From a virus, in the IMG/VR virus record IMGVR_UViG_3300020401_001032, positions 1 through 26,904 of that record: a DNA stretch of 26,904 bases; one strand, 5' to 3'. Position numbers and translations under genes: made by a program. Shown here piece after piece: positions 10,374-26,904 of the stretch (positions are counted from its first letter, which is position 1; each line of letters opens with the position of its first letter). The notes beneath the pieces are model-generated. The model saw nothing but the letters and a program-made list of their open reading frames with translations, had not been told where the DNA came from and made no database searches.

Positions 10374-10393
10374 TCCAATATTTTGGAATACTA

Positions 10394-10426: not shown

Positions 10427-10428
10427 GG

Positions 10429-10457: not shown

Positions 10458-10480
10458 AGTATTATAACAATTAGGAAAAG

Positions 10481-11788
10481 ATGGCACAAATGACAACTAA
10501 TATATCAACAAAAGAACAAGAAGTATTAGACAGATGGGAAGAGATTAAAAATGCCCCAGAAGTTGAAATTACTGACGAACTAAGAGCAGAAGTTTTAGAT
10601 AAAATTATTGTAGCAAGGGTAGGACTATTACTTAGACATCCTTTCTTTGGTAACATGGCTACAAGGCTTGTTATTAAAGAAGCAACAGATTGGTGTCCTA
10701 CTGCCGCAACAGATGGTAGACACTTGTTTTATAGTGTTCCATTCTTTGCAAAGATGTCTAACAAAGAAGTTGAATTTGTAATTGCACATGAGATACTTCA
10801 TTGTGTATATGACCATATGACAAGACGTGAAGATAGAGATGCTATGCTTCATAACATTGCCGCAGACTATATCGTAAACAATACACTTGTAAGAGACGGC
10901 ATAGGTGAAAAACCTGCAGATATTCCTATATACCAAGACTTTAAATATGAAGGTTGGACTTCAGAAGCAGTATATGATGAGCTTTACAAGAAAGCTGACA
11001 AAGAAGAATTAAAACAATTAGGTAAACTACTTGACGAACACATTGATTGGGAAAAAGGTGATGGTCAAAGCAAGTCTGGTAGTAAAGATGGCAAGAGTAG
11101 TAAGCCGTCTTATAGCAAAGAAGAACTTTCTAAGATTAGAGATGAAATAAAAGAGAACATGATGTCTGCGGCACAGGCCGCTGGTGCAGGTAAGACTCCT
11201 AAAGAAATTGAAAGAATGATTAAGAATCTTACTGAACCAAAGATGAATTGGAGAGAAATACTTAGACAACAAATACAAAGTACAATCAGAAATGATTACA
11301 GTTTTGCTCGTCCTAGCAGAAGAGGTTGGCACACTGGTGCAATCCTTCCTGGTATGCAGTTTGACGAAACTATTGATATTTGTATTGCAATTGATATGTC
11401 AGGTTCAATTGGTAACGAACAAGCTGAAGACTTCTTAGGTGAAGTACAAGGTATCATGCAAGAGTACAAAGACTATAACATTAAATTATGGTGCTTTGAT
11501 ACAGCCGTTTACAATGAACAAGATTTTACTGCCGACAACGGAAGTGAACTGAGTGAATACAAAGTTACTGGTGGCGGTGGTACAGACTTTAATGCCAACT
11601 GGGAATACATGAAAGAAAATGATATACTTCCTAAAAGGTTCATAATGTTTACAGATGGTTATCCTTGGGATAGCTGGGGTGATGATAATTACTGTGATAC
11701 AGTATTTGTAATTCATTCAAATCATGACAAGAACTTACAGGCACCATTTGGTATCACTTGTCATTATGACGAGAAGAAGAGGGCTTAA
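10481..11788 (+). CDS. VWA-domain protein with N-terminal metallopeptidase-like domain (MoxR partner)
   Basis: A 435-residue two-domain protein. The N-terminal domain has a zinc-peptidase-like HEILH (103-107) followed by NIAADYIVN (124-132), as in putative metallopeptidases joined to VWA-like domains. A Lys/Ser/Gly-rich linker spans about 190-215. The C-terminal VWA domain has a full MIDAS: DMSGS (304-308), the threonine in GGGGTDF (363-369) and FTDGYPW (389-395). Partner proteins of this kind (compare CobT, NorD, ViaA) work with MoxR ATPases, and the ATPase gene lies directly upstream. GGAAAAG precedes the ATG. Whether the HEILH site is proteolytic is unknown. The stop overlaps a 25-codon gene. 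Confidence 0.88.
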   Translation: MAQMTTNISTKEQEVLDRWEEIKNAPEVEITDELRAEVLDKIIVARVGLLLRHPFFGNMATRLVIKEATDWCPTAATDGRHLFYSVPFFAKMSNKEVEFVIAHEILHCVYDHMTRREDRDAMLHNIAADYIVNNTLVRDGIGEKPADIPIYQDFKYEGWTSEAVYDELYKKADKEELKQLGKLLDEHIDWEKGDGQSKSGSKDGKSSKPSYSKEELSKIRDEIKENMMSAAQAAGAGKTPKEIERMIKNLTEPKMNWREILRQQIQSTIRNDYSFARPSRRGWHTGAILPGMQFDETIDICIAIDMSGSIGNEQAEDFLGEVQGIMQEYKDYNIKLWCFDTAVYNEQDFTADNGSELSEYKVTGGGGTDFNANWEYMKENDILPKRFIMFTDGYPWDSWGDDNYCDTVFVIHSNHDKNLQAPFGITCHYDEKKRA

Positions 11789-13450: not shown

Positions 13451-14815
13451 ATGGCGTTAAAATTAAGAAGAGGAACAGACTCACAAAGAGCATTAATTAC
13501 ACCAGCAGATGGTGAATTGATCTATACTACAGACACCAAAAAGCTATTTGTTGGAGACGGAACTACACAGGGTGGTAATCCTGTTGATACAGCCGGCGCC
13601 GCATTAGGGTCAAATCTTTCACTTAACAATTTTGATTTAGTTGGTACAGGTAACATCAACACAACTGGAAATATCACAGTAACAGGTAATATTACTGCTG
13701 ATGGAAACTTAACTTTAGGCGGTAATTTAACAGTAGGTGACGCCAGCTCTGATACATTAAATTTAACTGCAAAAGTAGAATCACACATTTTACCAGATGT
13801 TGATAGTGCAAGAAATGTTGGATCTGCAACATTAAGATGGAACCAAGGTTACTTTGGATCTTTACACATTACAGATACACTTGATGCTGGAAGTGTAAAT
13901 GCAAATATAATTGGTGATGATTCAACTGTAATAGTAAACAAGGCAACTGGAGCCATTAATGCTTCAGGTACATTTAAAGGTGATGTTAAGGCAACTGATA
14001 ATACAAGTTTCTTTAATGCAACATCAAAAGAAATCAATGCAGGTGCGGCAACATTTACTGGAGCAGTTGCGGCTCCAAGTATAACTGCTGGAAGTATAAC
14101 AGGAAACTTCAAAGGTACGATAGCAGGTGATGATTCAACAATATTAGTTGATGCTGTCAACAGTACTGTAAGATTAGACAACGGATTAATTAGTATCAAC
14201 AGTGATACACTATCAGCACTACAGGCTGACTTCTTTATATCAAGCAAGACAGCTGGTGTACCAACCACAATGACAATCAATGATAACTCAGCAGGTGGTA
14301 GTGCTTTAAAAATATTTGGTAAGACAAACAGTTCCTTTGATCCATTAACTGCATTAGTATTCAGAGGATTCAAAGATAATTTAGTAACACCAAATGCAAT
14401 GGTGGCTGGTCAATACATTGGTAAGTTAAGTTTCCAAGGTTATGACACAGGCACAACTAACATTGTTGAGTCAGGTGGTATTGCTTGGAGAGTAGATCCA
14501 AATAACTCACCAATTGGCACAGACACAATGAAAGGTAAAATGGAGGTTGTAACCCAAGCAGGTTCAAACTCATCACCAGATCTAAAATACTTAACATTTG
14601 ATTCACAAGGTAGATTAGGTGTAAACAAACAAACTGCAACTGCCGTGCTAGATGTTGACGGAGATGCAATATTCTCAAGTACAGTAAAATTTGCTAACCT
14701 AACAGAAGTGCAAAGAGACGCATTAAGTTCAGTAAGTGCTGGTATGGTTATCTACAACACAACCTCAAACAAACTTCAAGTACGTACTGGTGTTAGCTGG
14801 GTAGACTTACACTAA
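13451..14815 (+). CDS. Tail-fibre/virion structural protein with repetitive beta modules
   Basis: A 454-residue protein. The N-terminus, LKLRRGTDSQRALITPADGE then LIYTTDTKKLFVGDGT (3-38), is the short module found at the start of many marine phage fibre-type proteins. The middle (about 60-240) is built from short repeats rich in Gly, Asn and Thr (TTGNITVTGNITADGNLTLG; GDDST followed by IV or LV twice), as expected for a fibrous beta structure. The C-terminal part ends in a typical fibre tail (AGMVIYNTTSNKLQVRTG). It is driven by a late promoter, and its stop overlaps the opposing gene by four bases. The receptor or virion position is inferred. Confidence 0.85.
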   Translation: MALKLRRGTDSQRALITPADGELIYTTDTKKLFVGDGTTQGGNPVDTAGAALGSNLSLNNFDLVGTGNINTTGNITVTGNITADGNLTLGGNLTVGDASSDTLNLTAKVESHILPDVDSARNVGSATLRWNQGYFGSLHITDTLDAGSVNANIIGDDSTVIVNKATGAINASGTFKGDVKATDNTSFFNATSKEINAGAATFTGAVAAPSITAGSITGNFKGTIAGDDSTILVDAVNSTVRLDNGLISINSDTLSALQADFFISSKTAGVPTTMTINDNSAGGSALKIFGKTNSSFDPLTALVFRGFKDNLVTPNAMVAGQYIGKLSFQGYDTGTTNIVESGGIAWRVDPNNSPIGTDTMKGKMEVVTQAGSNSSPDLKYLTFDSQGRLGVNKQTATAVLDVDGDAIFSSTVKFANLTEVQRDALSSVSAGMVIYNTTSNKLQVRTGVSWVDLH

Positions 14816-16275
14816 TTAAATTCAGGATAACTTATATTTAAATTGTCACGTATGCTTTGACGCATATCAATAGCACAATAATCATCACCATACAAAATTA
14901 AATCATCAGGTACCAAACTTTTAAATTTGTTCCATTTGATTTTAAGTTGATCTGGACCTTGATTCCAATGCAACATTTCACTTGACCATACATTGGTAGT
15001 CCATAAAACTTTGTTGCCTTCCTGTGCTTTGATAATATTAAAAAGGTTTGTTGGTTCGTTTACAATATCTATTTTGTAATAATTGTGTTCAAGGTTTACA
15101 TACCTATCCCATAGTTTTTTAAATGCTTCAGCACCACCAAAGTCTTGTAATTCTTGTTGCCAAAATGGCTCGTAATTGCCTCTATACGTTGAGGCAAAGT
15201 TATACTTTAGATCATGTTCCAACAGCCACAGGTGTAAATCGACCCCATTCCACGTTTCTATAAGGTCTCTTTTATATAATAAACTTGCATCGCACCAATC
15301 AAAGTAATGTATTTTTGTGTTATCATTGAATCCATTTGTGTTTAATATAGACAAAGGTTTGAATCCAGCGGCCACACTAAACAAATGATCAATGTTTTCT
15401 GTGCGTTTACCTTCGCCAGATAAAGTTTCTGTATTAAAAGCATAAACACGATCCTTTTCTATCTTTTCCTGTTGGTCTAATTTACGTAACCAAGCCTTTT
15501 GATTATAATTTAATTCTTCAACTTGCCAATAATCTTTTTGTATCCAGCTCTTTGAAAGAATGTCTGATTTGTTATATGGATAAAGAAATACTTTACAAGC
15601 CCTCATGTCATTTGTTAGATTATCAATTTTGATATTTGACCTTAAAGCAATATCAATCCAATTACTACCGTCTGATGTTTTTGTCCAATGTTTTTCTCCC
15701 TCAGCAGTATCAATCCAAGCAGGTGTATATTCAGCATGAATCTTTTCTTCACTTAATTTAAAATTTTGTAACTTAGGCATTCTGTCTCTAAATATTCCTA
15801 GTTCATCAAAAGGAGGTTTGCCAAGTTGCTCCCAAACTTTTAGATTAACAAAAAGATACTGCCTATGCAAACCAGGATATGCTCCTTTGGTTGCATAATG
15901 ATTTTGTCCTTTTTTGTCCATGATGTGTCCACAAACAAAGAAGTTAGGATTTTCTTTTGCATATTTTAAACTTTGTTCTACTAGATTAGGACCCCTATAA
16001 AGCAACAATCCTTGTGCGGCCACTATACAATATTCATGTCCTTTTGCAAGACTGTTTTCGAGAATGTTTTCAACCTTGTGCCAACTGCCAACGTAATCTG
16101 CAACTTTCATTTTCATCATTCTATTGATGTAAAAGTAAGTCATTTCTAAACAACGTTTACTTACAAATTCATTTTTTATATCTCTTGAAATATTAAGTAT
16201 GCCTATGCCTACTTGATTATTTGATTGATGATCCTCATAGTATCTATCGTGTGTTAAACTGTTCCAGTCTTTCAT
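14812..16275 (-). CDS. Large unknown protein, possibly glycosyltransferase-like
   Basis: The ATG at 16275 follows GGAGGCGG and overlaps the stop of a small upstream gene, so it is preferred over a TTG at 16305. The product has 487 residues and is rich in Trp, Tyr and Asn. The first 200 residues (GHEYCIVAAQGLLLYRGPNL; GAYPGLHRQYLFVNLKVW; KPPFDELG) look like a GT-A type glycosyltransferase or an enzyme reading a sequential list of residues, but I see no clear DxD in the usual context. It may act with the nearby dioxygenase and radical SAM genes. Family membership is a guess; the coding call is secure. Confidence 0.6.
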   Translation of the reverse strand: MKDWNSLTHDRYYEDHQSNNQVGIGILNISRDIKNEFVSKRCLEMTYFYINRMMKMKVADYVGSWHKVENILENSLAKGHEYCIVAAQGLLLYRGPNLVEQSLKYAKENPNFFVCGHIMDKKGQNHYATKGAYPGLHRQYLFVNLKVWEQLGKPPFDELGIFRDRMPKLQNFKLSEEKIHAEYTPAWIDTAEGEKHWTKTSDGSNWIDIALRSNIKIDNLTNDMRACKVFLYPYNKSDILSKSWIQKDYWQVEELNYNQKAWLRKLDQQEKIEKDRVYAFNTETLSGEGKRTENIDHLFSVAAGFKPLSILNTNGFNDNTKIHYFDWCDASLLYKRDLIETWNGVDLHLWLLEHDLKYNFASTYRGNYEPFWQQELQDFGGAEAFKKLWDRYVNLEHNYYKIDIVNEPTNLFNIIKAQEGNKVLWTTNVWSSEMLHWNQGPDQLKIKWNKFKSLVPDDLILYGDDYCAIDMRQSIRDNLNISYPEFN

Positions 16276-16400
16276 TAACCGCCTCCGAACCCTGTCCAGT
16301 TCCAAGGATCTTTGAACTTGTCGTCAACAGATTTGTGTGGCTTACAAGTACATCTAATGAACAAGCCAGCTAATATTCCTACTAAAAACCAAGTTAACAT
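16275..16400 (-). CDS. Tiny membrane protein with CTCKPH motif (41 aa)
   Basis: A 41-codon gene with ATG at 16400 after AGGGGATAA; its stop overlaps the next start (TAATG on this strand). It begins one base after the stop of the dioxygenase gene. The product has a hydrophobic N-terminal helix (2-16), then RCTCKPHKSVDDKFKD and a C-terminal PWNWTGFGGG. The two cysteines and a histidine could bind metal or be lipidated only if exported. The strong ribosome binding site and precise fit support translation. Function is unknown. Confidence 0.62.
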   Translation of the reverse strand: MLTWFLVGILAGLFIRCTCKPHKSVDDKFKDPWNWTGFGGG

Positions 16401-16401
16401 T

Positions 16402-17112
16402 TTATCCCCTATTAGTGTAATAACTTTGTCTTAACACATAAAACATATCACGTAATCTTCTACCAACTTCACCATGTATTATCATGTGTATCCTTGGTAC
16501 ATCACTTTTGTTCCATACTGCATGAACGTTGCTGATGTCCATTAAAAACGCACCGCCTTTATCTTGGAAAGGCACGACTCCATGATCCTTAAAAATAAAT
16601 TCACAGTCATCAGGATTGTTTAAGGCTATGTTGCATACACTTAATCTTTTTTCTTTTGCATCTCTATCTTGATGAGGCAAAATATATCCTCCTGGTTCCA
16701 GCAACATAAATCTTACTCTATTGAGATACTCCATAGGCCATACATCTTTTAAAAAAGTTTTCACAGTAGGACACTTGTCTGCTACCCATGTCCAATCTAA
16801 TTGTTTAATTACTTTGTCTCTATCACCATAACTGTCTAATGTTTGAGTATCATCATCTAATCCATGTATTGTTAAGCTCTTCCAACCATAGCCATAATCA
16901 TCTCTATGATCGTGAAAAGACTCTAACAAACTTTCTGCTTCGTTGTGCATTTTAGCCCAGGGTTGATTGTCCAGTGCTGATAGTTTAAAGAAAGGCCAAT
17001 GCGATTCTTCAACTAACCACATTGGGTCAAATACATCTTGGTATAAAAAATTTACGTCTTTTTTGTGTTCTTTCCAGAATGTTTCCAGGGTTTTTGTATG
17101 TTCTATATCCAT
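16402..17112 (-). CDS. 2-oxoglutarate/Fe(II)-dependent dioxygenase (aspartyl hydroxylase-like)
   Basis: A 236-residue protein of the 2OG-Fe(II) oxygenase superfamily. The iron ligands are visible as H147 and D149 in LPHQDRD and H197 in NVHAVWNKSD, and R207 in PRIHMIIHG is the likely 2-oxoglutarate anchor. The spacing and the VHAVWN context resemble aspartyl/asparaginyl beta-hydroxylase-like proteins common in marine phages. AAGGTAG lies upstream of the ATG at 17112, and the gene diverges from a radical SAM gene across 35 bases. The substrate may be a protein side chain or a small metabolite. Its place in an island of radical SAM enzymes suggests joint modification of one product. Confidence 0.85.
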   Translation of the reverse strand: MDIEHTKTLETFWKEHKKDVNFLYQDVFDPMWLVEESHWPFFKLSALDNQPWAKMHNEAESLLESFHDHRDDYGYGWKSLTIHGLDDDTQTLDSYGDRDKVIKQLDWTWVADKCPTVKTFLKDVWPMEYLNRVRFMLLEPGGYILPHQDRDAKEKRLSVCNIALNNPDDCEFIFKDHGVVPFQDKGGAFLMDISNVHAVWNKSDVPRIHMIIHGEVGRRLRDMFYVLRQSYYTNRG

Positions 17113-17147
17113 TAAACTACCTTATAATTCAGTTAAATATACTTATC

Positions 17148-18176
17148 ATGTATTTGGATATAGAAGATATAGATACGATTACAGTAGATTTTACTGCTCA
17201 TTGTAATGCTATGTGTGGTAACTGTTCAAGAAATTTAGGTGGAGTAGAAGTAAATCCACGTATGCCTCTTGAACATATGAGTCCTGCAACATTCAAAAAT
17301 CTGTTCAGTGAGAATGTTTTAAGAAACATCAATCAGATTGTATTCAATGGATCATATGGAGATCCTTTGGTAAGTCCACACTTGTTTGAATGTTTGGATT
17401 ATTTAAAAAACTACAAAAAACCTATTATCCATATACATACCAATGGTGGTATGAGACAGCCTAAATACTTTGATGAACTAGCAAATAAATTAAAAGACTT
17501 TCCATTTCCAACTCATGTAGTTTTTAGCATAGACGGTTTAGAAGATACAAATCATCTTTACAGAAGAAATGTTAAATGGAATAAGGTAATGGAAAACGCC
17601 CAAGCATTTTTAGACGCAGGTGGATTAGGAAGATGGCGTATGTTGGTGTTTGAACACAATGCACATCAATTAGAACAAGCAGAAGAATTAAGTAAAAAAA
17701 TGGGATTTGCAAAATTTGATATAAATGGTGGACATACTTTTACTGCTATGAATAGTATGGTTAATAAAGCAATAGAAAAATTTAAAGCCAACAAACGGGA
17801 ACAAGCTCGTACAATAAAATACGATACAAGCAAACTAGATAATTTAAAACGTTTAAAAGATTTGAAACAAAAACATGGCAGTTTGGCTGATGGATTCAAG
17901 AAATCATGTATAACTTGTAAATGGCAAAAGAAAAGAAAAATACAAGTTAGCCATGTTGGTGAAGTATTTCCTTGTTGCTATATGCTATCTGACAGATATC
18001 CAAGAGAAGTAGAAAGCCCTTATGCACAAGAAGTATCAAAAGTAGATTGGCTTAATGTAAATGATATGCCTTTGGAAGTTATATTAGACAGTCCTTTCTT
18101 TGCACAAGATCTGCCTGAAAGTTGGTCTAGTGAAAATAGGTTTAAAATTTGTGAGGTAACTTGCGGTGAGGTGTAA
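17148..18176 (+). CDS. Radical SAM protein with SPASM-like C-terminal cysteines
   Basis: A 342-residue radical SAM enzyme. The 4Fe-4S cluster motif is C19, C23, C26 in HCNAMCGNC. GSYGDP (69-74) stands where the usual GGEP lies, as in some SPASM-type subfamilies. SIDG (127-130) follows in the core. The C-terminal domain carries C254, C257, C276, C277, C335 and C339, enough for one or two auxiliary clusters. The frame is open upstream to 17022 across the divergent gene, but the ATG at 17148 is the sensible start; it has no ribosome binding site, so translation may be weak or leaderless. It overlaps the next radical SAM gene by 11 bases. The substrate (peptide or small molecule) is unknown. Confidence 0.85.
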   Translation: MYLDIEDIDTITVDFTAHCNAMCGNCSRNLGGVEVNPRMPLEHMSPATFKNLFSENVLRNINQIVFNGSYGDPLVSPHLFECLDYLKNYKKPIIHIHTNGGMRQPKYFDELANKLKDFPFPTHVVFSIDGLEDTNHLYRRNVKWNKVMENAQAFLDAGGLGRWRMLVFEHNAHQLEQAEELSKKMGFAKFDINGGHTFTAMNSMVNKAIEKFKANKREQARTIKYDTSKLDNLKRLKDLKQKHGSLADGFKKSCITCKWQKKRKIQVSHVGEVFPCCYMLSDRYPREVESPYAQEVSKVDWLNVNDMPLEVILDSPFFAQDLPESWSSENRFKICEVTCGEV

Positions 18177-19200
18177 GTATTTAGATCATCAAGTAATGAT
18201 ACGCCCTGATGGCGAGTTTCGTTTGTGTTGCATTAGTAATGAAAAGACAAACAAAGAAAACATAAAACAAATGACTCCAGAACAATGGTTAGCAAGTGAA
18301 ACACCTACAAAAGCACGTGAGCAACTTGCTAACAATGAATGGCCAGATGCTTGTAAAAAATGTAAGCTGATGGAAGAAGCTGGTAGACCAAGTATGCGTC
18401 AAAGACCAAGAGAATATGGTCCTGGTATAAGTCATTTGGATATAAGGTTTGGAAACCAATGTAATTTACGTTGTACCATGTGTTACCCAGGTAGTTCTAG
18501 TAGTTTGTACGAAGAACACAAAGAACTAAAGGCAAAAGGCGAAAGCCCATGGGGTTGGTTTGACTATGGCTTATACAACTGGTATACAGATGAGCAGGGA
18601 GAAACATTAGCACGTAATCCTAATTTAAGAGAAGTATATCTTACAGGTGGTGAACCTATGATGGTGAAAGGACTAAACAAGTTTCTTGCAAAACTAGATC
18701 CATCAGTTGAAGTAAGATTTAACACTAATGGTACATTGTTTAATCCGAAAGTTTTTAATGAACTTAAAAGATTCGAACGTGTGAACATGAACTTTAGCAT
18801 TGATGGTATAGGCAGAACAAATGATTACATACGTTGGGGTAGTAATTGGGACGTTGTAGAATACAACCTTAATAAATTTAGAGAGGTAGCTGATGTAAGT
18901 TTAGGTCCTACTGTGCAAATAATGAATGTTTTAGAATATGATGACTATGTTGAATATGCACAGGCAAACCAATTAGAAATATTTGATAACTTGCTAATGA
19001 CTCCAGATTGTCTACACATAAAAAATGCACCACAGGCAATGAAAGATAATATTGCACATTTTGATTACTGGATGAATCACCCTACAAGTATTGAAAAGCA
19101 GGAAGAATTTAAAAAGTGGATAGGTGTGTTAGATAAAAATAGAGGTTGTAGCATCAAGGAATACTTACCAGAAGTGGCAGGATACTATGGAATTAATTAA
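18166..19200 (+). CDS. Radical SAM protein with N-terminal twitch-like cysteine segment
   Basis: The start is GTG at 18166, eight bases after GAGGT, inside the end of the previous gene. The 344-residue product begins with the cysteine layout of twitch-domain radical SAM proteins: C3, C21-C22 (RPDGEFRLCC), C63 and C66 (ACKKC). The radical SAM cluster motif is C99, C103, C106 (QCNLRCTMC), GGEP lies at 161-164, and FNTNGT and FSIDGIG follow. Proteins of this architecture are frequent in marine phages, and their reactions are not established. It overlaps the kinase-like gene downstream by 14 bases. Paralogues lie at 19626 (+) and 22955 (-). Confidence 0.87.
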   Translation: MRCKYLDHQVMIRPDGEFRLCCISNEKTNKENIKQMTPEQWLASETPTKAREQLANNEWPDACKKCKLMEEAGRPSMRQRPREYGPGISHLDIRFGNQCNLRCTMCYPGSSSSLYEEHKELKAKGESPWGWFDYGLYNWYTDEQGETLARNPNLREVYLTGGEPMMVKGLNKFLAKLDPSVEVRFNTNGTLFNPKVFNELKRFERVNMNFSIDGIGRTNDYIRWGSNWDVVEYNLNKFREVADVSLGPTVQIMNVLEYDDYVEYAQANQLEIFDNLLMTPDCLHIKNAPQAMKDNIAHFDYWMNHPTSIEKQEEFKKWIGVLDKNRGCSIKEYLPEVAGYYGIN

Positions 19201-19651
19201 AAAGAATATAGAAAAGAAAAGAGAAGTTTACAAGTTAGATGATAGATATCGTAAGGTTTGGTATATCCATGATGAGTTTGCCTTAGAAGAACACATATCT
19301 ATTTTAGACAAAGTGATACCAGGATATGTATTAGATTATGGCACAACAAAAAATAGTATGTTCATAGATTATCATATAGTACCTGGCACGCCGGCAAACA
19401 AAGTGCCACACACACCAAAATTTTTTAAAAGGATATACACTTTTTGTAATGAAACATTAGATCAAACTTTGCCATATGCACACTATGATTGGGTGTTAAG
19501 CAATATACTTTTAGATGGAGATAACACTTATCTTGTAGATTGGGATAACGTAGGAATATATTCACCACAGGAAATTCAAACAAAAATGGAAAGCGATCTA
19601 CGATCAGCTTTTGGAGAAAAATACGATGAAATGCTTCGCACCATGGCATAG
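19187..19651 (+). CDS. Minimal kinase-like (APH/choline-kinase-type) protein
   Basis: A 154-residue protein with the catalytic loop of aminoglycoside/choline kinase-like phosphotransferases: H99, D101 and N106 in AHYDWVLSNIL, followed by LVDWDNVG (116-123), where D118 matches the metal-binding aspartate. Most of the N-terminal ATP-binding lobe is missing: the family usually spans 250 residues or more, and no glycine loop is evident in the first 70 residues. It is sandwiched between two radical SAM genes with overlaps on both sides. It may phosphorylate a small molecule in the island pathway, or be a binding protein without activity. Confidence 0.72.
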   Translation: MELIKKNIEKKREVYKLDDRYRKVWYIHDEFALEEHISILDKVIPGYVLDYGTTKNSMFIDYHIVPGTPANKVPHTPKFFKRIYTFCNETLDQTLPYAHYDWVLSNILLDGDNTYLVDWDNVGIYSPQEIQTKMESDLRSAFGEKYDEMLRTMA

Positions 19652-20750
19652 TATTTTGGTACGTTTTAATGGTGACATAGTACCTGATGGTGTGTACTTA
19701 AAACGTTACGGAAACGTGCTAGAATCGTCTTTAAATGACCTTTTAAACAGCTATACAGCGTCATACACACGTGATTCAATAAGAGCGGGCCACTTACCGC
19801 CCGAGTGTCAACAATGTGCTTTAAAAGAGCTCTCTGTGGGTCATAGCAGGAGATTATTTTTCAAAGATATTTTGAATCCAATGCTAGAAAATACCAATTA
19901 TGATTACTCCAAAAACTTCACAGATATCTACTTTTTGGAATTCAATATGAGCAATATCTGTAACCTAAAGTGTAGAATGTGCGATGGAATAAATTCAAGT
20001 GCTTGGGTAAAAGATGATCTTAAATTAGCACAAAACGGTAACCCCTATGGACGTAGAATAGATGATCCAGAATTCGGATACACCAATAAAAGCGATGAAA
20101 TAGTTGCTAGACTGTTTGAGGATCCAACACCATTCATGAACTTGAGATATCTTAGCATCAAAGGTGGCGAACCTTACATGGAACCTGCAAATAAATTGAT
20201 ACTTAAAAAATTTATTGATTTAGGAATAGCAAAGAACATAACTATAGACTGGACTACTAATGGCACAATAGTAGATGAAGAAGTCGCTCAATTGGCCAAA
20301 CAATACAAGGAAACAAAATGGACTGTGAGTTTGGAAGGCACAGATGGTTTATATGAATACATTCGAGGCGGAAAAAACTTTACATTTGAACAACTAAATG
20401 AAAATTTAAAACAATATGATTTTGATAGAATAATTATTGCTGTGACTGTGATGGCTTACAACATAGCACACCTTGATAAAATACATTGGTGGTTTGAAGA
20501 AAACAAAAAAGACAACTGGGAAATATATTTCAACAACGTGGTTACAGCCCCTCCTTATTTGAATCCAAGAGTTTTGCCTAACGAGATATTAGATAAGATT
20601 GATTTTAGATTACCTAAGATAAATTATACACAATCTGAACAAGCACCTAAGTATATTGATGCTTTTATAAACTACACAAATGATTTAGATAAAATTAGAA
20701 ATACAAGAGTACTAGATCATTGTCCAGAACTTACTCCCCTGTTTGGATAG
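19626..20750 (+). CDS. Radical SAM protein with a degenerate N-terminal twitch segment
   Basis: The ATG at 19626 follows GGAG and is preferred to a TTG at 19611. The 374-residue product starts MKCFAPWHSILVRFNGDIVP, the usual opening of twitch-type proteins, but where paralogues have a CC pair this one has PDG, leaving only C3, C61 and C64. The radical SAM motif is intact: C112, C116, C119 (ICNLKCRMC), with GGEP at 180-183 and TTNGT and VSLEGTDG later. The auxiliary cluster is probably altered or lost. It overlaps the kinase-like gene by 26 bases, and its end overlaps the convergent SDR-like gene by 20 bases. Confidence 0.85.
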   Translation: MKCFAPWHSILVRFNGDIVPDGVYLKRYGNVLESSLNDLLNSYTASYTRDSIRAGHLPPECQQCALKELSVGHSRRLFFKDILNPMLENTNYDYSKNFTDIYFLEFNMSNICNLKCRMCDGINSSAWVKDDLKLAQNGNPYGRRIDDPEFGYTNKSDEIVARLFEDPTPFMNLRYLSIKGGEPYMEPANKLILKKFIDLGIAKNITIDWTTNGTIVDEEVAQLAKQYKETKWTVSLEGTDGLYEYIRGGKNFTFEQLNENLKQYDFDRIIIAVTVMAYNIAHLDKIHWWFEENKKDNWEIYFNNVVTAPPYLNPRVLPNEILDKIDFRLPKINYTQSEQAPKYIDAFINYTNDLDKIRNTRVLDHCPELTPLFG

Positions 20751-21282
20751 GATCCAAAGCAATATAATGTAGATTAATATCACGAGGTGAATCTATTACC
20801 CACTTCACATATTTTCCTGCTTCGAGCAAACTTATCTTGTGTCTAGTATCATCTTTATTTTTTTGACTTTGACTGTTTAGTTGACCAAAAGCAATATTAC
20901 TAATCCGTATTTTACTGTCACCCCAGCATACATTTTTTGCTAACCTTTTGCTTCTTCCGTCAAGCAAAGTTTTATTTTCAATATAGTTTCTAGGACTGTA
21001 ACCATCACCCCAGTAAGAACTTGTACTGCTGATGTTTATTATGTGTCCGCTATCAAACTTTTCATATACAGCATCTAACAGCTCAACCTGTTCTCCGTTA
21101 GGACCGTATTGGCTGTTAACAAATACATCATATGACTTGGCATAGTTTGCCACCTTTTCATAATCTGTAAGATCCCAACCATTCCATCTTCCTATAAATT
21201 CTACAAAATTACGATTGTATGCTTCGTATATGCCTTTGCATAGTCCTTCATAGTTTGGATTACCTGTAACTAATATTTTCAT
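20731..21282 (-). CDS. Short-chain dehydrogenase-like protein (183 aa)
   Basis: A 183-residue Rossmann-type protein. It opens MKILVTGNPN with a shortened or altered glycine motif, followed by strand patterns DVFVNSQYG and GHIINISSTSSYW (the catalytic serine region of SDR enzymes) and NYIENK (Y-x-x-x-K). It is much shorter than typical SDRs (about 250) and lacks the C-terminal substrate region. AAGGT lies upstream of the ATG, which overlaps the stop of a small membrane protein gene. It is the last gene of the minus block. It could reduce or epimerise a sugar, or be a degraded SDR. Confidence 0.7.
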   Translation of the reverse strand: MKILVTGNPNYEGLCKGIYEAYNRNFVEFIGRWNGWDLTDYEKVANYAKSYDVFVNSQYGPNGEQVELLDAVYEKFDSGHIINISSTSSYWGDGYSPRNYIENKTLLDGRSKRLAKNVCWGDSKIRISNIAFGQLNSQSQKNKDDTRHKISLLEAGKYVKWVIDSPRDINLHYIALDPIQTGE

Positions 21283-21473
21283 TAATCTTTACCTTCTTTA
21301 GAGATATCATCAATACGTTTAGTAGTTGTGTCTTTACTAAATGATGCGGCAATAAAACTTGCGGCCGCTAACATTGGAATGGTATAAACCATCTTATCTG
21401 TGAGATATGCTACCAAGTATGTTGGCACTAAAACTATAACTGCCTGAATTAATCCAATTTTATACTTTTTCAT
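21282..21473 (-). CDS. Small two-pass membrane protein (63 aa)
   Basis: A 63-residue protein with two hydrophobic segments (about 7-25 and 30-46) and a charged C-terminus (KDTTTKRIDDISKEGKD). AAGGAAAG precedes the ATG. It overlaps the upstream radical SAM gene by 14 bases and the SDR-like gene by one base. It may be a membrane partner or an unrelated passenger. No family is recognised. Confidence 0.68.
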   Translation of the reverse strand: MKKYKIGLIQAVIVLVPTYLVAYLTDKMVYTIPMLAAASFIAASFSKDTTTKRIDDISKEGKD

Positions 21474-22371
21474 TTTCTTTCCTTATGTATATGTCGCTTA
21501 AACAACTGCATCTTTCTTTGCCACAAAGTATTTTTTCCTTTGGCAGTTTGTATCTTTCTAAGTTTCCTATTGCTCCGCCAAACTGACAGTCAGCCCTATA
21601 CATATTTCCCCACATATCTATATTGACTCCGTGTAATCCTGCCCAACAGTTCCAACCACTAAACTTGTTTTTATCTTGCAATATTAAATCATTAGCATTT
21701 ACAACTTCATCATTTAACATCATAGCACCCCTATGTAATTCTTCATCATTTACTTTACGTGAAAAAGGCCAATCTTTAATTAATTGTTTTTGTGCTTCTG
21801 TGTATGTCATAACTTCATTTGTGATGTTTTCAGAACTTGTTTTGTCAACTATAACCTTAGGAACTATACTAGCTCTTGCAGTTGAGCTATAAATTTTTTC
21901 AGCAAGTGCAAAAATTTCTTCGAAGTCACTAGGCAATAACATCATGTTTATCACAGTTTCTATTTTGCTTTCATTTATAATTTTTATGAAATGTTCAGGA
22001 TTTGCGTATGCTTTATGATAACTTAACATCATACCATCTGTGTAAGGAGCAATCTTTTTAAAATACTCAGGACTTTGACTGCCATTACTTATAAAGGTAA
22101 ACTTGTGACCTTCTTCTTTAACAAGTTCTGCAAGATCAATAAAGTGTTTCCAATAAGTAGGTTCTCCTCCACTTAATCTATAACAAATTTTTTTATCTTT
22201 TAAATTAAAGTTTTGCACAAATCTTTTTACAGTTGACCATTGAGGTTGTCCTGTACTTCCATTATGTAATATGTCTGGACAGTATTCACATCTATAATTA
22301 CACTTGTTAGACAATGTCCAACTGACTAGGAACCAATTATTTTTTGCAGGATCTTTGTATGTTAGTTTCAT
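21460..22371 (-). CDS. Radical SAM protein with SPASM-like C-terminal cysteines
   Basis: A 303-residue radical SAM enzyme. The cluster motif is C24, C28, C31 (KCNYRCEYC), preceded by LVSWTLS; GGEP lies at 68-71, and FISNGS and MMLSYHKA follow. The C-terminal part carries C242 (NCWAGLHG), C262 (ADCQFGG), and C283, C288, C290 (CGKERCSC), so an auxiliary iron-sulfur cluster is likely. It lacks the N-terminal twitch segment. AGGAAC lies before the ATG, and the start overlaps the SDR gene upstream by four bases. Together with that SDR it may form a two-step oxidation/reduction on one substrate. Confidence 0.86.
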   Translation of the reverse strand: MKLTYKDPAKNNWFLVSWTLSNKCNYRCEYCPDILHNGSTGQPQWSTVKRFVQNFNLKDKKICYRLSGGEPTYWKHFIDLAELVKEEGHKFTFISNGSQSPEYFKKIAPYTDGMMLSYHKAYANPEHFIKIINESKIETVINMMLLPSDFEEIFALAEKIYSSTARASIVPKVIVDKTSSENITNEVMTYTEAQKQLIKDWPFSRKVNDEELHRGAMMLNDEVVNANDLILQDKNKFSGWNCWAGLHGVNIDMWGNMYRADCQFGGAIGNLERYKLPKEKILCGKERCSCLSDIYIRKENEKV

Positions 22372-22958
22372 GGGTTCCTAACCTCTATTCTTGAAATGTG
22401 TGTTCCTTCTAACCAACTTTCAATTATGTATTTTACACAATTTGATATTGATTCTTCTTTTATCAAAGTACCATTTTTTTCGTGGGTACTATATAAATTT
22501 TCAACCCATTTTTTAAAAGGCCCCGTTGCTAGGTTTAGCTCAGATAAATTTGATTTAGTGATGTTAGGGCTTATTACACTAACTTTGCACTTCCAATGAT
22601 TCTTGTTTATCTCTACACTCTGTTCGTCCATATACTTTTTATCTATGTAATACTGTTCTGTTGCAAACTTGCTAGGATCTTCTGCACTAGCAATTTGACT
22701 GCTAATATTTACACACAGTTTGGCCTTGTCCTTGTTTGTCTTACACCAAGCCATAAACAATGCGTTTTGATCTACAGGAATATATGCGTTGTTGATCAAT
22801 ATGTCTGCTGTTGCTATCAGCTCAAGATTGTCTAGCACATCTTGACCATTTTTCTTATCAAGTCCTATTATCTCGTAATCATCAACAAACCACCACAGAC
22901 CCTCCATTATAGCTTTTCCTATTACACTTTCACTGCCTGTTACAATTATTTTTCTCAT
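22368..22958 (-). CDS. SDR-family oxidoreductase-like protein
   Basis: A 196-residue short-chain dehydrogenase-like protein. The NAD(P) motif is TGSESVIGKAI (7-17), close to TGxxxxIG. INNAY (55-59) matches the NNAG-type motif, LCVNISSQIA (81-90) holds the catalytic serine region, and YYIDKK provides Y-x-x-x-K. It is shorter than common SDRs. The ribosome binding site is weak, and the start overlaps the twitch-type radical SAM gene upstream (4 bases). A second SDR-like gene follows the next radical SAM gene, giving an alternating order. The substrate is likely a sugar or polyol; this is inference. Confidence 0.82.
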   Translation of the reverse strand: MRKIIVTGSESVIGKAIMEGLWWFVDDYEIIGLDKKNGQDVLDNLELIATADILINNAYIPVDQNALFMAWCKTNKDKAKLCVNISSQIASAEDPSKFATEQYYIDKKYMDEQSVEINKNHWKCKVSVISPNITKSNLSELNLATGPFKKWVENLYSTHEKNGTLIKEESISNCVKYIIESWLEGTHISRIEVRNP

Positions 22959-24259
22959 ATAAACTGTCCTAGTTCAGGAAACGTTTTTCTAAAATCTGTC
23001 CCACGTCTTTCATCTGTTACTTTTAAATATTCTTGTAAAGCTGGTAACTTGTGACTCCAGTCTTCTTGCATCATGTATTTTAACAAACCATGCCAACGTT
23101 GTGCTCCATACGGATGTTGATTAAATTCTAAATTAAATTTTTGTCTATCTATAAAAGTTTCTACTTTTTCCTTAATCCAATCTTTAGCTGATTTAGGTAA
23201 AACTTGCACGTTCAAGTATGATGGCAAATAGACTAAATGTGTTCCTATTATTCCTCCGCCGAACATTGAAGGATTGATTTTACTAAATCCTTGATCCATT
23301 TTCCATTCAGCTAGTTCATCTATGTACCCTGCATTTAATAATTGTACTGCACAGGCAATATTGATAACTGTGTTGTCCTTTGTATTTTGATCAAGTCTTT
23401 TTAAGTTGGTTTCAACGTCCGACCACTTGCTTGGATAACGTATATATTCATTACGTTGTCCGTAAGCATCTATGCTAAAATTAAATCTAATTTCTTTGAA
23501 ATGATCCCATAACTGAAATAATTTGTCTGGTAATTCTAACCCATTTGAATTATATCTTAAATTACAGTCTTTTGCATATCCTTCCGCAACCATAAATTCT
23601 AATATTGCATAATGTTCAGGTATCAATAATGGTTCACCACCTGCAAAGTATAGTTCCTGTATGTGCTGTGCTTGACTTTTCATCGAATCTATAAAAGATC
23701 CTTTCTTGTACCAAGTATAATCATATTGATCGTCCCAACCTTGATCTGCAATTAAATCTTTGTTTTTATACTGTGGATATTGTAGTTTCCATTCTTTGAT
23801 CCAACTTGAACTATCATGTGGACTACACATAACACATTTAAGTTGACATAAGTTTCCTAAACGAAGATCAAAGTAAGGAATATTTACAGGTGCAGTACCA
23901 TCATCTTGTGTACTTGCAATAAGTTTGTTAAAGTCTAAACGTTGTTTCCATTCTTCAGTTTCCCATTGGCGTTTACTTGTTATACCTTTTGCTTCTTCAT
24001 TAAAACATTTTACGCAACTGCTTGGCACTTCTCCATTTAACATTTGCAGTCTTGTTCTTCTCATGTGTTCACTGTTCCACACTTCTTCTATTGTATGGTC
24101 ACGCAAGTTCATTGCTATACCATCTTTCTTAACAAGTCCTGCTGTCTTTTCATCTTCTTTACCTGCACCACTGGCATTGGCAGTACAACAAACTCTAACA
24201 TCTCCATTAGGTCTTGTAGCTAAATGTATCCATGGCAAAGGGCAAAAAGTTTTAGTCAT
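22955..24259 (-). CDS. Radical SAM protein with complete N-terminal twitch segment
   Basis: A 434-residue twitch-type radical SAM protein with all expected cysteines: C6 in FCPLPWIHLA, C24-C25 in RPNGDVRVCC, C82 and C85 in SSCVKC, and the radical SAM set C138, C142, C145 (LCQLKCVMC). GGEP lies at 207-210, with RYNSNG and FSIDAYG later. GGAAGGA precedes the ATG, and it overlaps the methyltransferase gene upstream by 8 bases. It is the most canonical of the three paralogues in the window. The reaction is unknown. The family belongs to the SPASM/twitch group, whose known members modify peptides, sugars or cofactors. Confidence 0.88.
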   Translation of the reverse strand: MTKTFCPLPWIHLATRPNGDVRVCCTANASGAGKEDEKTAGLVKKDGIAMNLRDHTIEEVWNSEHMRRTRLQMLNGEVPSSCVKCFNEEAKGITSKRQWETEEWKQRLDFNKLIASTQDDGTAPVNIPYFDLRLGNLCQLKCVMCSPHDSSSWIKEWKLQYPQYKNKDLIADQGWDDQYDYTWYKKGSFIDSMKSQAQHIQELYFAGGEPLLIPEHYAILEFMVAEGYAKDCNLRYNSNGLELPDKLFQLWDHFKEIRFNFSIDAYGQRNEYIRYPSKWSDVETNLKRLDQNTKDNTVINIACAVQLLNAGYIDELAEWKMDQGFSKINPSMFGGGIIGTHLVYLPSYLNVQVLPKSAKDWIKEKVETFIDRQKFNLEFNQHPYGAQRWHGLLKYMMQEDWSHKLPALQEYLKVTDERRGTDFRKTFPELGQFI

Positions 24260-24860
24260 CTTTCCTTCCTATTAACATATATCTTGTGTACTTAGGTAAT
24301 TCTAGTTCCATCTTTTCAGAAACTTTTAATTTACTTTTTCTTTCAAAATCTGCAAGACTTTTCATACAATTCACGTGTTCTTCTAGTTCGAAATAATTGT
24401 TGCTTTGTAAAACAATCTGTGCATCACCTGGCACTTTATCTAACCACTTGTTATATTGTTCCTGTGTTATGTGTTCACAACTTGTATTGATTACAAAATA
24501 AGGATTAGTTTTGTATTCATATTCACACATATCTGCTGTAACAGATTCAAATTTACCTTCCATCTCATAACGTTTATTCATTGTTGATGCAATTTCTTTA
24601 CATTTAGGATCTATGTCTATGCTAGTGATATGTTTTATTCCAAGTTCACTATTGAATATCATACAAGCCAACAATCCATTCCAACCTCCGTGTATGATAC
24701 ATTCTGCGTTTCTAATTGCTTTGTGTTTCTCAAGTTGTTCTATTAACCACAACTTGCTTTTGATTTGCCCTCCCCAAAAAGTTTCAAGTGTGCGATCTCT
24801 ATCATCACTGTTGCGGATTGCATCCATCCAAAATTTTATGTCATTAATATCAATTTTCAT
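24252..24860 (-). CDS. Class I SAM-dependent methyltransferase-like protein
   Basis: A 202-residue Rossmann-type protein. IIHGGWNGLLACMI (55-68) stands at the SAM glycine-loop position, followed by ITSIDIDPK with the acidic residue that usually binds the SAM ribose. ADMCEYEY and VINTSCEHI supply the post-strand motifs (the latter in place of NPPY/DxxxH-type signals). IVLQSNNYFELEEHVNC follows. It fits a small-molecule methyltransferase. The glycine loop is less regular than GxGxG, so activity should be taken as likely rather than certain. It overlaps the nucleotidyltransferase gene upstream by 11 bases. Confidence 0.7.
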   Translation of the reverse strand: MKIDINDIKFWMDAIRNSDDRDRTLETFWGGQIKSKLWLIEQLEKHKAIRNAECIIHGGWNGLLACMIFNSELGIKHITSIDIDPKCKEIASTMNKRYEMEGKFESVTADMCEYEYKTNPYFVINTSCEHITQEQYNKWLDKVPGDAQIVLQSNNYFELEEHVNCMKSLADFERKSKLKVSEKMELELPKYTRYMLIGRKDD

Positions 24861-25554
24861 TTATGTAACTTTCTAGATCTTCTGGTGTCCCAATACCTTG
24901 CATTGAAACAACATCAAATGCACACACATTTGCACCTTCCTTTATAGTGTAATTATACACAGGGCAAGTGTAAAATTCATTGTTGACCCTATCATTAGCT
25001 TCAATCATTTGATCTATGTTTCTAAACATTTGTATTGCATCACGCCAATAATAATATCCTACTGTTGCTCTGTCTGATATTGCTTTCTTTTCTGCAACCT
25101 CTACAACTTTGTCTGCAACTGTTTTTGCATAACTCCATTTAGGATTTTTATCTGGACACGTAAAGGTTGCTATAAGTCCGTCTATGCCATTGTCTATGAT
25201 TGTTCTAACCTTGTTGCTATCCCATGCAACACTTTGATCACAGTTGCTAACAAACACACTATCCCCCTCAGCGAATAGTTCTTTGGCTTTGTAAAGTGTA
25301 CAAGCAGTTCCTTCTGTAAGTTGGTCCAGCTCTATGACTGTTGCATTAGAATATAAATCTTTTATTTTGTCAGTGATGTTATGATCCTTACGCACTATAA
25401 AAATACGTTCATCAAAGTCAATACCTATCTGTTGTTCAGCATATTGAAACATTGGTATACCTTTTACAGGAACCAAAGGCTTGGGTATATCATATCCTTT
25501 TTCTTTGAACCTGTTTCCATCACCTGCCATAGGCATTATTAACTTAATACTCAT
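24850..25554 (-). CDS. Sugar-nucleotide-type nucleotidyltransferase
   Basis: A 234-residue protein of the NTP-transferase family, which activates sugar or polyol phosphates with a nucleotide. The signature is at the start: MPMAGDGNRFKEKGYDIPKP (7-26), with the G-x-G-x-R loop and the PKP lysine. SNCDQSV gives the metal-binding aspartate region and TVGYYYW a later family-like segment. The C-terminal GIGTPEDLESYI is typical of cytidylyl/thymidylyl-transferase-like members. AGGGG lies upstream of the ATG. It overlaps the HAD gene by 11 bases; the pair suggests synthesis of an activated building block. Confidence 0.87.
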   Translation of the reverse strand: MSIKLIMPMAGDGNRFKEKGYDIPKPLVPVKGIPMFQYAEQQIGIDFDERIFIVRKDHNITDKIKDLYSNATVIELDQLTEGTACTLYKAKELFAEGDSVFVSNCDQSVAWDSNKVRTIIDNGIDGLIATFTCPDKNPKWSYAKTVADKVVEVAEKKAISDRATVGYYYWRDAIQMFRNIDQMIEANDRVNNEFYTCPVYNYTIKEGANVCAFDVVSMQGIGTPEDLESYINEN

Positions 25555-26128
25555 TTAACAACCCCTTTAAATGTTCTACATTTTTAACTTGCTTTACAGT
25601 AGCCGTGGTTGAAGTTGCCGCTTGTATTCCTAGTGGACTATCTTCAAATATTACTGTTTGCATTGGCGATACTCCGTAATGATACATGGCATTGTAATAC
25701 ATATCAACTTCTGGTTTAGGTTTGTGTTCTGTTGCTGTACACACAGGCTCAAACATATCTAACTTTTGTATTGCTAAACTTTTATCTACAAATTTACGAG
25801 TAGCATTTGAACAAACTGCAAGTCTATATTTTTTGCTTAATCTAACAAATATATCTTTTAGTTCTTGGTCAAACTTAACATATTTGCTAATATCATTCAT
25901 TGTATATTCTTGTTTAAGATCCATTAATAGTGTTTCGTCAAACTGATATCCTTTTGCTTTCAAATAATCAATCTTAACAAAGGTAGGCATTCCTTCTACT
26001 TCTTCGTCAGTATAACGTATTGCGTTATTCACTTTCATACAAGCCTTTCTAAAAGCCTGTTGATGCAGTTCCTTGCAATCTGCAAGTGTGCCATCGTAAT
26101 CAAGTATTAGTAAGTTAACAGTTTCCAT
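25544..26128 (-). CDS. HAD-superfamily phosphatase (subfamily IA-like)
   Basis: A 194-residue HAD hydrolase. Motif I is LILDYDGTLAD (7-17), with the nucleophile and acid/base aspartates. Motif II is AVCSNAT, motif III the lysine in EHKPKPEVDMY, and motif IV IFEDSPLGIQAA. A helical cap between motifs I and II fits the beta-phosphoglucomutase/phosphoglycolate phosphatase branch. It lies between a possible glycosyltransferase and the nucleotidyltransferase with overlaps on both sides, so a role in sugar-phosphate handling is likely. The exact substrate cannot be read from sequence. Confidence 0.88.
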   Translation of the reverse strand: METVNLLILDYDGTLADCKELHQQAFRKACMKVNNAIRYTDEEVEGMPTFVKIDYLKAKGYQFDETLLMDLKQEYTMNDISKYVKFDQELKDIFVRLSKKYRLAVCSNATRKFVDKSLAIQKLDMFEPVCTATEHKPKPEVDMYYNAMYHYGVSPMQTVIFEDSPLGIQAATSTTATVKQVKNVEHLKGLLNEY

Positions 26129-26844
26129 TTTATTTCATCTCTTAAAAAAATATTTTCTCCTGCATCACCAGTAAGTATGGCTTGCCAAACGTGTGTATTC
26201 TTTACTCTATCTCCTAATTCCATAATCCAAGGATTGTTTATTATCGATTGTATTGATGTAATAGGATCATCTGCCCATACAACTAAATTTTTAAACATAT
26301 CATATGGTCCTGCATAATACCAATCTTCTGCTCTAAAAATGTTGTCATCAAAACTTATTTCAGGACAATGTATTTTGCCTTTTTGAAACTCTGGCAACTG
26401 ACCTTTGCCCGCCGCATCAGATCTTCCTAACCAAACGTAATCGTATTTTTCTGCGTTCTTTAAATTAAATCCAGCTATGCTTCTAAATGCTTTTGCCCTG
26501 CTAATATATTGTCCACAAGGAAAGTTTTCAACATTGAAAGATGTATCATAATCTTCAACTTCAATAAACCTAGGATTGTATATGCTATACTCTTCCATGA
26601 TAACTTCCCTGTAATTTTTTACTATCTCAAAATCAGGCGGATAAAACTTTGAAGTTTCTGGTCTTGTACCAAAGCGATACTTTTCATTGGCTTTGGTCCA
26701 TCTACCAAGCTGTGTCCAACTGTGGATATACGTATGCACCTTGTACTTCTCGCACAACTGTTGATATATTTCATCTTGTCTAAATGTTTCTGCTACCAAT
26801 CTAGCTTCACCACCAATTATGTATGCAAGTGTTTTCTTTTTCAT
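26107..26844 (-). CDS. Putative glycosyltransferase-like protein
   Basis: A 245-residue protein. It opens with a strand and loop, LAYIIGGEARL (6-16), then YKVHTYIHSW (34-43), and has KYDYVWLGRSDAAG (133-146), a pattern like the YDYVxRxRxD segment of WavE-type surface-polysaccharide proteins. AEDWYYAGPYDMF follows in the place of the acceptor/donor site. These suggest, without proving, a glycosyltransferase of the GT-A type. The ATG overlaps the stop of the cut-off gene upstream, and no strong ribosome binding site is seen. It overlaps the HAD gene by 22 bases. Confidence 0.6.
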   Translation of the reverse strand: MKKKTLAYIIGGEARLVAETFRQDEIYQQLCEKYKVHTYIHSWTQLGRWTKANEKYRFGTRPETSKFYPPDFEIVKNYREVIMEEYSIYNPRFIEVEDYDTSFNVENFPCGQYISRAKAFRSIAGFNLKNAEKYDYVWLGRSDAAGKGQLPEFQKGKIHCPEISFDDNIFRAEDWYYAGPYDMFKNLVVWADDPITSIQSIINNPWIMELGDRVKNTHVWQAILTGDAGENIFLRDEIKWKLLTY

Positions 26845-26904
26845 TTTTTAAGTTTCTTTATTAACAGTGGTAAGTAAACGCATACTGCAACTACACTCCA
26901 GAAG
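26841..26904 (-). CDS. C-terminal end of a small membrane protein, cut by window edge
   Basis: On the minus strand one frame is open from the window edge to a TGA that overlaps the next ATG as ATGA, the junction style used throughout this window. The visible end reads FWSVVAVCVYLPLLIKKLKK, a hydrophobic helix followed by a lysine-rich tail, as in a single-pass membrane protein. A second frame is also open but ends three bases short of the next ATG and gives a less protein-like sequence. Only about 20 residues are visible. Confidence 0.45.
   Translation of the reverse strand, partial: FWSVVAVCVYLPLLIKKLKK

What the first reader, a model, noticed from the sequence alone, without database searches (positions are those of the whole stretch)
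14812..26904. Phage accessory island with five radical SAM proteins and sugar-nucleotide-type enzymes
Within 12 kb there are five radical SAM genes (17148, 18166, 19626, 21460, 22955), two SDR-like genes, a 2OG-Fe(II) dioxygenase, a kinase-like gene, a methyltransferase, a nucleotidyltransferase, a HAD phosphatase and two possible glycosyltransferases. The motifs are seen directly. That they form one pathway is inferred from overlaps within three blocks and the dense packing. The radical SAM cysteine sets and the nucleotide-sugar enzymes together suggest synthesis and radical chemistry on an unusual sugar or glycan, for virion decoration or change of the host surface. A peptide target is the main alternative.
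Basis: partly seen in the sequence, partly recalled or inferred. Interest (0 to 1): 0.78.

Follow-up and report, generated by a model that had tools for sequence, protein, structure and literature searches.

The report
Radical-SAM sugar island in ocean phages
A family of uncultured marine viruses of bacteria carries, beside its tail-fibre genes, a tightly co-inherited set of nine radical enzymes plus sugar-transfer enzymes, whose core also sits in sugar-coat gene neighbourhoods of Bdellovibrionota bacteria, so it probably makes or edits an unusual surface sugar.

Summary
All five radical SAM (rSAM) genes are present at the stated starts, with intact CxxxCxxC motifs and strong purifying selection; three are N_Twi_rSAM (NF033640). 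The window cuts the island short: a 99.4% identical contig shows nine rSAM genes in about 21 kb, between tail-fibre genes and an Mtd_N tail protein of a T4-like phage. The core is co-inherited: rSAM2, rSAM3, rSAM4 and the kinase are in 17/17 distinct relatives; c1, c3 and c7 in 21/21. The window's 'sugar-nucleotide' genes (NTP, HAD, GT245) and SDR2 are not core; they occur only in close relatives. A reduced core (c3, c1, rSAM5, MT, c7) also lies in chromosomes of about 20 of 369 Bdellovibrionota genomes, among neighbours about 34-fold enriched in GT2 glycosyltransferases. No conserved precursor peptide was found. Best reading: an accessory pathway in the phage's host-recognition region that builds or edits an unusual glycan by radical chemistry and attaches it with GT-A enzymes. 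The substrate is not shown. rSAM-rich marine T4-like phages were already noted (PMC5332604, PMC7029224); the conserved module and its bacterial counterpart were not found in the papers searched.

The parts
13451..14815 (+). Flanking tail-type protein with Mtd_N (major tropism determinant N-terminal) domain; left border of the island
   Evidence: PF18454 4e-12; same border in the 268-kb relative
14812..16275 (-). GT497: two-part protein, GT-A-like N-terminal half, C-terminal half uncertain (ATG start; a TTG start at 16305 is also possible)
   Evidence: No Pfam/PHROG hit; AlphaFold pLDDT 83, weak Foldseek matches to GT-A enzymes and AviRa; conserved in relatives
16402..17112 (-). 2OG-Fe(II) oxygenase of the Asp_Arg_Hydrox family
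   Evidence: PF05118 1e-11; present in 16/17 distinct relatives
17148..18176 (+). rSAM1, class A: radical SAM with C-terminal SPASM
   Evidence: PF04055 5e-11, PF13186 1.6e-4; CxxxCxxC at residue 19
18166..19200 (+). rSAM2, class C: N-twitch radical SAM (GTG start)
   Evidence: NF033640 2e-73, 248 bits against cut-off 170
19187..19651 (+). KIN: minimal kinase-like protein, HxDWVLSN and DWDN motifs
   Evidence: Motifs invariant 37/37; PF01636 weak; weak profile match to kinase domains incl. OspG; 17/17 relatives
19626..20750 (+). rSAM3, class C: N-twitch radical SAM
   Evidence: NF033640 5e-66
20731..21282 (-). SDR1: short SDR-like protein (YxxxK)
   Evidence: Weak SDR matches; 14/17 relatives
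21282..21473 (-). 63-residue membrane protein, accessory
   Evidence: Only in near-identical relatives
21460..22371 (-). rSAM4, class B: radical SAM without SPASM
   Evidence: PF04055 3.5e-12; 17/17 relatives
22368..22958 (-). SDR2: SDR-like, accessory
   Evidence: Weak SDR matches; missing from most relatives
22955..24259 (-). rSAM5, class C: N-twitch radical SAM; ortholog in Bdellovibrionota
   Evidence: NF033640 1e-127; 46-50% identical bacterial copies
24252..24860 (-). MT: class I methyltransferase-like, core
   Evidence: PF13649 weak; GGWxG 76/76; 20/21 relatives
24850..25554 (-). NTP: sugar-nucleotidyltransferase-like, accessory
   Evidence: PF12804 2.5e-5; PDB 4evw 1e-11; phrog_3980
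25544..26128 (-). HAD phosphatase, accessory
   Evidence: PF13419 4e-21
26107..26844 (-). GT245: possible glycosyltransferase, not confirmed, accessory
   Evidence: Only phrog_13607 of unknown function, 3e-4

Best explanation
The island is part of a roughly 23-kb accessory pathway in the host-recognition (tail-fibre) region of a large T4-like marine phage. Its stable core is three kinds of radical SAM enzyme used together, here called class A (rSAM plus C-terminal SPASM: rSAM1, c1), class B (no SPASM: rSAM4, c3) and class C (N-terminal twitch: rSAM2, rSAM3, rSAM5, c0, c22), with a methyltransferase, a mini-kinase, a 2OG hydroxylase and GT-A-type transferases (c7, GT497). Shown: gene content, co-inheritance, intact motifs, purifying selection, and a chromosomal counterpart of the core in glycosyltransferase-rich loci of Bdellovibrionota. 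Inferred: the rSAM enzymes act on a sugar or glycan intermediate (epimerisation, oxidation, deoxygenation or C-methylation), which is methylated, phosphorylated or hydroxylated and then transferred by the GT-A enzymes. The final acceptor would be the host surface glycan or the phage's own tail fibres. Swappable genes (NTP, HAD, SDR2, UDP-sugar dehydrogenase, aminotransferases) would supply or diversify the sugar.
For: Core co-inheritance 17/17 and 21/21 in distinct phage relatives, repeated with c7 as bait. Nine rSAM genes between tail-fibre-type genes and the Mtd_N protein. GT-A folds for c7 and, weakly, GT497. UDP-sugar dehydrogenase in the extension and a sugar-nucleotidyltransferase-like gene. 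Bdellovibrionota counterparts: c3-c7 in 17 genomes against 1.3 expected, c3-MT in 20 against 2.3; neighbours 14/84 GT2 against about 0.5% of genes. Distant N_Twi-type rSAMs also lie among glycosyltransferases on a Methylomagnum plasmid and, by reading the sequence, in Vibrio phage K566. No conserved precursor ORF.
Against: No substrate or product known. The nucleotide-sugar genes of the window are not conserved with the core. Most characterised SPASM/twitch enzymes act on peptides (own knowledge). A distant class-B relative sits in a peptide-export-like cluster. c7 TM-scores are low, 0.35-0.41. Bacterial neighbourhood enrichment is association, not function.
Confidence: 0.55

Rival explanations
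1. The rSAM enzymes modify protein: they install post-translational changes (epimerisation, cross-links, C-methylation) on phage tail fibres or on a host peptide, with the 2OG hydroxylase, kinase and GT-A enzymes adding further marks to the same protein.
For: SPASM/twitch architecture; 2OG of the Asp/Arg-hydroxylase family; tail-fibre genes on both sides; a distant class-B relative with HlyD, peptidase-ABC transporter and GT2 on a Photobacterium plasmid; weak kinase-profile match to large kinase-domain proteins.
Against: No conserved small ORF in the cassette, no PqqD/RRE match and no maturase equivalog cut-off reached; bacterial counterparts lie among GT2 genes.
Confidence: 0.27
2. The island makes a diffusible small molecule or lipid (cofactor, signal or antibiotic-like product) that benefits infection, not a glycan; the GT-A enzymes decorate it.
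For: Mixture of rSAM, methyltransferase, kinase, 2OG and, in relatives, aminotransferase and porphobilinogen deaminase; halogenase-like and AMP-binding-like genes beside the island in the 268-kb relative (by reading the sequence).
Against: No carrier-protein or terpene/polyketide core enzyme seen; those extra genes are not conserved with the core; tail-fibre position and bacterial glycosyltransferase setting fit a surface role better.
Confidence: 0.12
3. The genes are unrelated cargo collected in a hypervariable tail-fibre region, with no shared pathway.
For: Five genes of the window island are not co-inherited, and gene order around the core is mosaic.
Against: Core co-inheritance in phages and, independently, in Bdellovibrionota; strong purifying selection.
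Confidence: 0.05

Closest known systems
Host recognition cluster (HRC) of pelagimyophages and cyanomyophages (Zaragoza-Solas et al. 2020, PMC7029224)
   Same: T4-like phage, large variable island beside tail-fibre genes with glycosyltransferases; [quoted passage not shown]
   Different: Here the rSAM set is a conserved core (nine genes in this phage) with methyltransferase, mini-kinase and c7; the passages read describe no such module. The phage host is unknown and the flanks VrlC/gp14 were not verified.
T4-like ocean genome TARA_ERS488813_N000010 (Nishimura et al. 2017, PMC5332604)
   Same: T4-like, 12 radical SAM genes in one genome.
NF033640 N_Twi_rSAM (twitch domain-containing radical SAM protein)
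   Same: rSAM2, rSAM3 and rSAM5 pass the curated cut-off.
   Different: The family has no assigned function; rSAM1 and rSAM4 are outside it.
Bdellovibrionota chromosomal clusters c3-c1-rSAM5-MT(-c7), found here
   Same: Same five gene families, often adjacent.
   Different: Bacterial copies lack the kinase and GT497 in the loci examined and lie among GT2 genes.
Vibrio phage K566 (OZ196521.1) rSAM cassette
   Same: Cultured phage with four N_Twi-like rSAMs between genes that read as glycosyltransferases.
   Different: Only about 21-29% identical to the phage rSAMs here; no class A or B rSAM, methyltransferase or mini-kinase recognised in the 11 genes examined.

Membership tests
NF033640 N_Twi_rSAM | Whole-protein score above the curated cut-off (170 bits) | tested here: met
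   rSAM2 248, rSAM3 223, rSAM5 426 bits; rSAM1 (46) and rSAM4 (18) do not reach it
Radical SAM superfamily (PF04055) | Score above cut-off and CxxxCxxC motif | tested here: met
   All five
RiPP rSAM/SPASM maturase system | Adjacent conserved precursor-peptide gene | tested here: not met
   Core genes abut or overlap; the only small ORF (16276-16401) is in 4 of 24 loci with this junction, window included
RiPP rSAM/SPASM maturase system | PqqD/RRE recognition domain or maturase equivalog cut-off | tested here: not met
   No PqqD match in Pfam; no maturase model reached its cut-off. A fused or divergent RRE is not excluded
Prokaryotic viperin (pVip) | Score above NF038283 cut-off (180 bits) | tested here: not met
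   Best is rSAM4 with 48 bits; PADLOC pVip 54 bits, partial
Host recognition cluster of T4-like marine phages | Large variable island among tail-fibre/structural genes with glycosyltransferase genes | tested here: met
   Structural and tail-fibre PHROG hits upstream, Mtd_N protein downstream; GT-A-like genes
Host recognition cluster of T4-like marine phages | Located between VrlC and gp14 | tested here: inconclusive
   A 4,937-residue ORF precedes the island in the 268-kb relative, but VrlC and gp14 identities were not tested
Surface-glycan biosynthesis pathway | Sugar substrate or product | not testable with these tools
   Needs biochemistry

The most novel reading that the evidence does not exclude
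The recurring A + B + C radical SAM set with methyltransferase and GT-A enzyme is a so far undescribed multi-radical pathway for a new kind of surface sugar, shared between Bdellovibrionota envelopes and hundreds of uncultured aquatic phages, which use it to remodel the host surface or to decorate their tail fibres.
Probability: 0.35. Interest if true: 0.82.

Novelty: new variant of a known kind. Interest (0 to 1): 0.62.

Why it matters
Glycan-modifying islands beside phage tail fibres are known, but this one is dominated by radical SAM enzymes, mostly of a subfamily with no assigned function. The conserved core, the three-class pattern and the chromosomal counterpart in Bdellovibrionota reduce many unknown genes to a five-gene module (c3, c1, rSAM5, MT, c7) that can be expressed and assayed. 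The cultured Vibrio phage K566 gives a possible laboratory model for a related rSAM-glycosyltransferase cassette. If the substrate is a sugar, it would bring radical enzymology into phage-host surface conflict in the ocean.

Tried and rejected
Viperin-type antiviral nucleotide synthesis: rejected, scores far below cut-off. Classical RiPP cluster with its own precursor: no conserved small ORF. Queuosine pathway: the QueE-like gene (4791-5693) and the FolE-like gene (2783-3469) lie outside the island. 'All genes of the island form one pathway': rejected for NTP, HAD, GT245, SDR2 and the 63-residue protein. Cultured phages: c3, c7 and GT497 have no hit among 50,697 records, and rSAM5 only 23% in two Vibrio phages. 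Plasmids gave only distant rSAM hits. The genome-contig scan with rSAM5 used strict patterns and returned only three loci. A PDB profile search for c7 gave nothing useful. A first attempt at this report failed its schema.
Full report
WHAT IS THERE. The window is one IMG/VR virus fragment of 26,904 bases. They are of three kinds. Class A has a C-terminal SPASM domain (rSAM1). Class B has no SPASM (rSAM4). Class C has an N-terminal twitch/SPASM domain (rSAM2, rSAM3, rSAM5) and passes the NF033640 cut-off. The class names are mine.

THE WINDOW CUTS THE ISLAND. A 75-kb record aligns to 18.5 kb of the window at 99.4% identity and a 48-kb record to 17 kb at 99.9%. In the 75-kb record the island runs on with UDP-sugar-dehydrogenase-like, SGNH-like and glycosyltransferase-like genes and four more rSAM genes: c22, c0, c3 and c1. 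That makes nine rSAM genes in about 21 kb, between structural genes and the Mtd_N tail protein. In the homologous region of a 268-kb relative the upstream genes hit baseplate-hub/tail-lysozyme and tail-fibre PHROGs. A Radical_SAM search of 13 long records finds 7-10 matches each, nearly all in one cluster.

CO-INHERITANCE IN PHAGES. rSAM5 finds 149 confirmed relatives, of which 80 were kept. Among loci long enough to see it, after removing near-duplicates, rSAM2, rSAM3, rSAM4 and the kinase are present in 17/17, 2OG in 16/17, rSAM1 and SDR1 in 14/17, c1, c3 and c7 in 21/21 and MT in 20/21. By contrast NTP, HAD, GT245, SDR2 and the 63-residue protein occur only in close relatives or sporadically. 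Pairwise dN/dS against a 95% relative is 0.02-0.16 (Nei-Gojobori). Catalytic motifs are kept: CxxxCxxC in 29/31, 34/37, 47/48, 56/57 and 81/81 for rSAM1 to rSAM5; kinase motifs 37/37; 2OG motif 28/29. Some misses may be truncated ORFs.

BACTERIAL COUNTERPART. A genome scan found an Oligoflexia MAG (JAALKR010000004.1) with rSAM1-, rSAM5- and rSAM4-like genes, MT and a c1+c7 fusion between chromosomal housekeeping genes. c3 and c7 coincide in 17 (1.3 expected, p 2e-21) and c3 and MT in 20 (2.3 expected, p 1e-20); shared ancestry of the genomes inflates these p-values. Several genomes have the genes side by side, for example c3-c1-rSAM5-MT in L189, L195 and L200. Identities to phage are c3 48-56%, rSAM5 mostly 46-50%, c7 about 40-45% for the closest copies and c1 mostly 36-41%. 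In quick trees the phage and bacterial c3 proteins form one supported clade, with one phage sequence inside the bacterial part. Neighbouring bacterial genes are Glycos_transf_2 in 14 of 84, against about 0.49% of genes (assuming one gene per kb) in ten of these genomes.

FOLDS. c7 is predicted with confidence (pLDDT 88.7) and its best PDB matches are GT-A enzymes (RmlT, chondroitin polymerase, GalNAc-transferases) and the GT-A-like HddC, though TM-scores are only 0.35-0.41. GT497 (pLDDT 83) matches weakly the PBCV-1 capsid glycosyltransferase, KdsB and the methyltransferase AviRa. I read it as a GT-A-like half plus another domain; this is tentative.

HOW IT MOST LIKELY WORKS. Shown: a conserved, selected, multi-rSAM module tied to GT-A-like enzymes, sited with tail-fibre genes in phages and with glycosyltransferases in bacteria. 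Inferred: rSAM enzymes edit a sugar or glycan, helpers methylate, phosphorylate or hydroxylate it, and transferases place it on the host surface or the virion. Against a classical peptide pathway: no conserved small ORF, no PqqD/RRE hit and no maturase cut-off reached. For a protein target: SPASM/twitch architecture, the Asp/Arg-hydroxylase family 2OG, tail fibres next door, and a distant class-B relative in a peptide-export-like setting on a Photobacterium plasmid. I give glycan 0.55, protein 0.27, small molecule 0.12 and unrelated cargo 0.05.

WHAT IS KNOWN. Nishimura 2017 (PMC5332604) reported a T4-like ocean genome with 12 rSAM genes, read as Fe-S metabolism. Zaragoza-Solas 2020 (PMC7029224) described the host recognition cluster with glycosyltransferases and mentions rSAM cassettes. 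A viromics study (PMC7150976) lists rSAM and glycosyltransferases as prevalent together in some samples. None of the passages read describes the module. Subscription papers and preprints were not searchable, so novelty is provisional. Cultured phages lack c3, c7 and GT497; Vibrio phage K566 has a distant rSAM-glycosyltransferase-like cassette.

LIMITS. ORFs were called mechanically; glycosyltransferase labels in K566 and several extension genes rest on reading the sequence. IMG/VR contigs are fragments and redundant. Other bacterial phyla were not surveyed, so Bdellovibrionota may not be the only or the donor group, and the phage host is unknown.

Noticed in passing
L014:9165-10004 and relatives: A complete porphobilinogen deaminase (HemC, PF01379 1e-65) is encoded inside the island of several relatives, between MT and rSAM5.
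   Followed up: partly
L095 (G001:178142-179302) and L095-L096 (G001:179782-180450): Beside the island of the 268-kb relative, a protein that reads like a flavin-dependent tryptophan halogenase and one that reads like an AMP-binding enzyme; not tested by profile.
   Followed up: no
L021:14714-17078: A pair of about 380-410-residue proteins (c13, c14), by eye repeat-rich and beta-propeller-like, sits between KIN and rSAM3 in most relatives but not in the window.
   Followed up: partly
window 16276-16401 (-): A 41-residue ORF, MLTWFLVGILAGLFIRCTCKPHKSVDDKFKDPWNWTGFGGG, with a hydrophobic start; shared with two near-identical contigs and with the more distant L029, absent elsewhere.
   Followed up: partly
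L121, L122, L205 and genomes G014-G016: Oligoflexia/Bdellovibrionales MAGs hold tandem arrays and 7 to 9 or so N_Twi_rSAM genes per genome above cut-off, none with a known function.
   Followed up: partly
L092-L094 (G001:124570-139383): A single 4,937-residue ORF precedes the tail-fibre genes in the 268-kb relative.
   Followed up: no
window 9288-11788: A MoxR-like ATPase and a metallopeptidase/VWA-domain protein are adjacent (phrog_1297, DUF2201).
   Followed up: no
L082: Mosaic inheritance: rSAM1-rSAM2-KIN-rSAM3 are 86-90% identical to the window while rSAM5 and MT are 66-70%, as if two blocks recombine separately.
   Followed up: partly
L029:2369-3935 and L079/L084/L278: Amidinotransferase-like and DegT-aminotransferase-like genes (c47, c37, by reading the sequence) recur together in some islands.
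   Followed up: no
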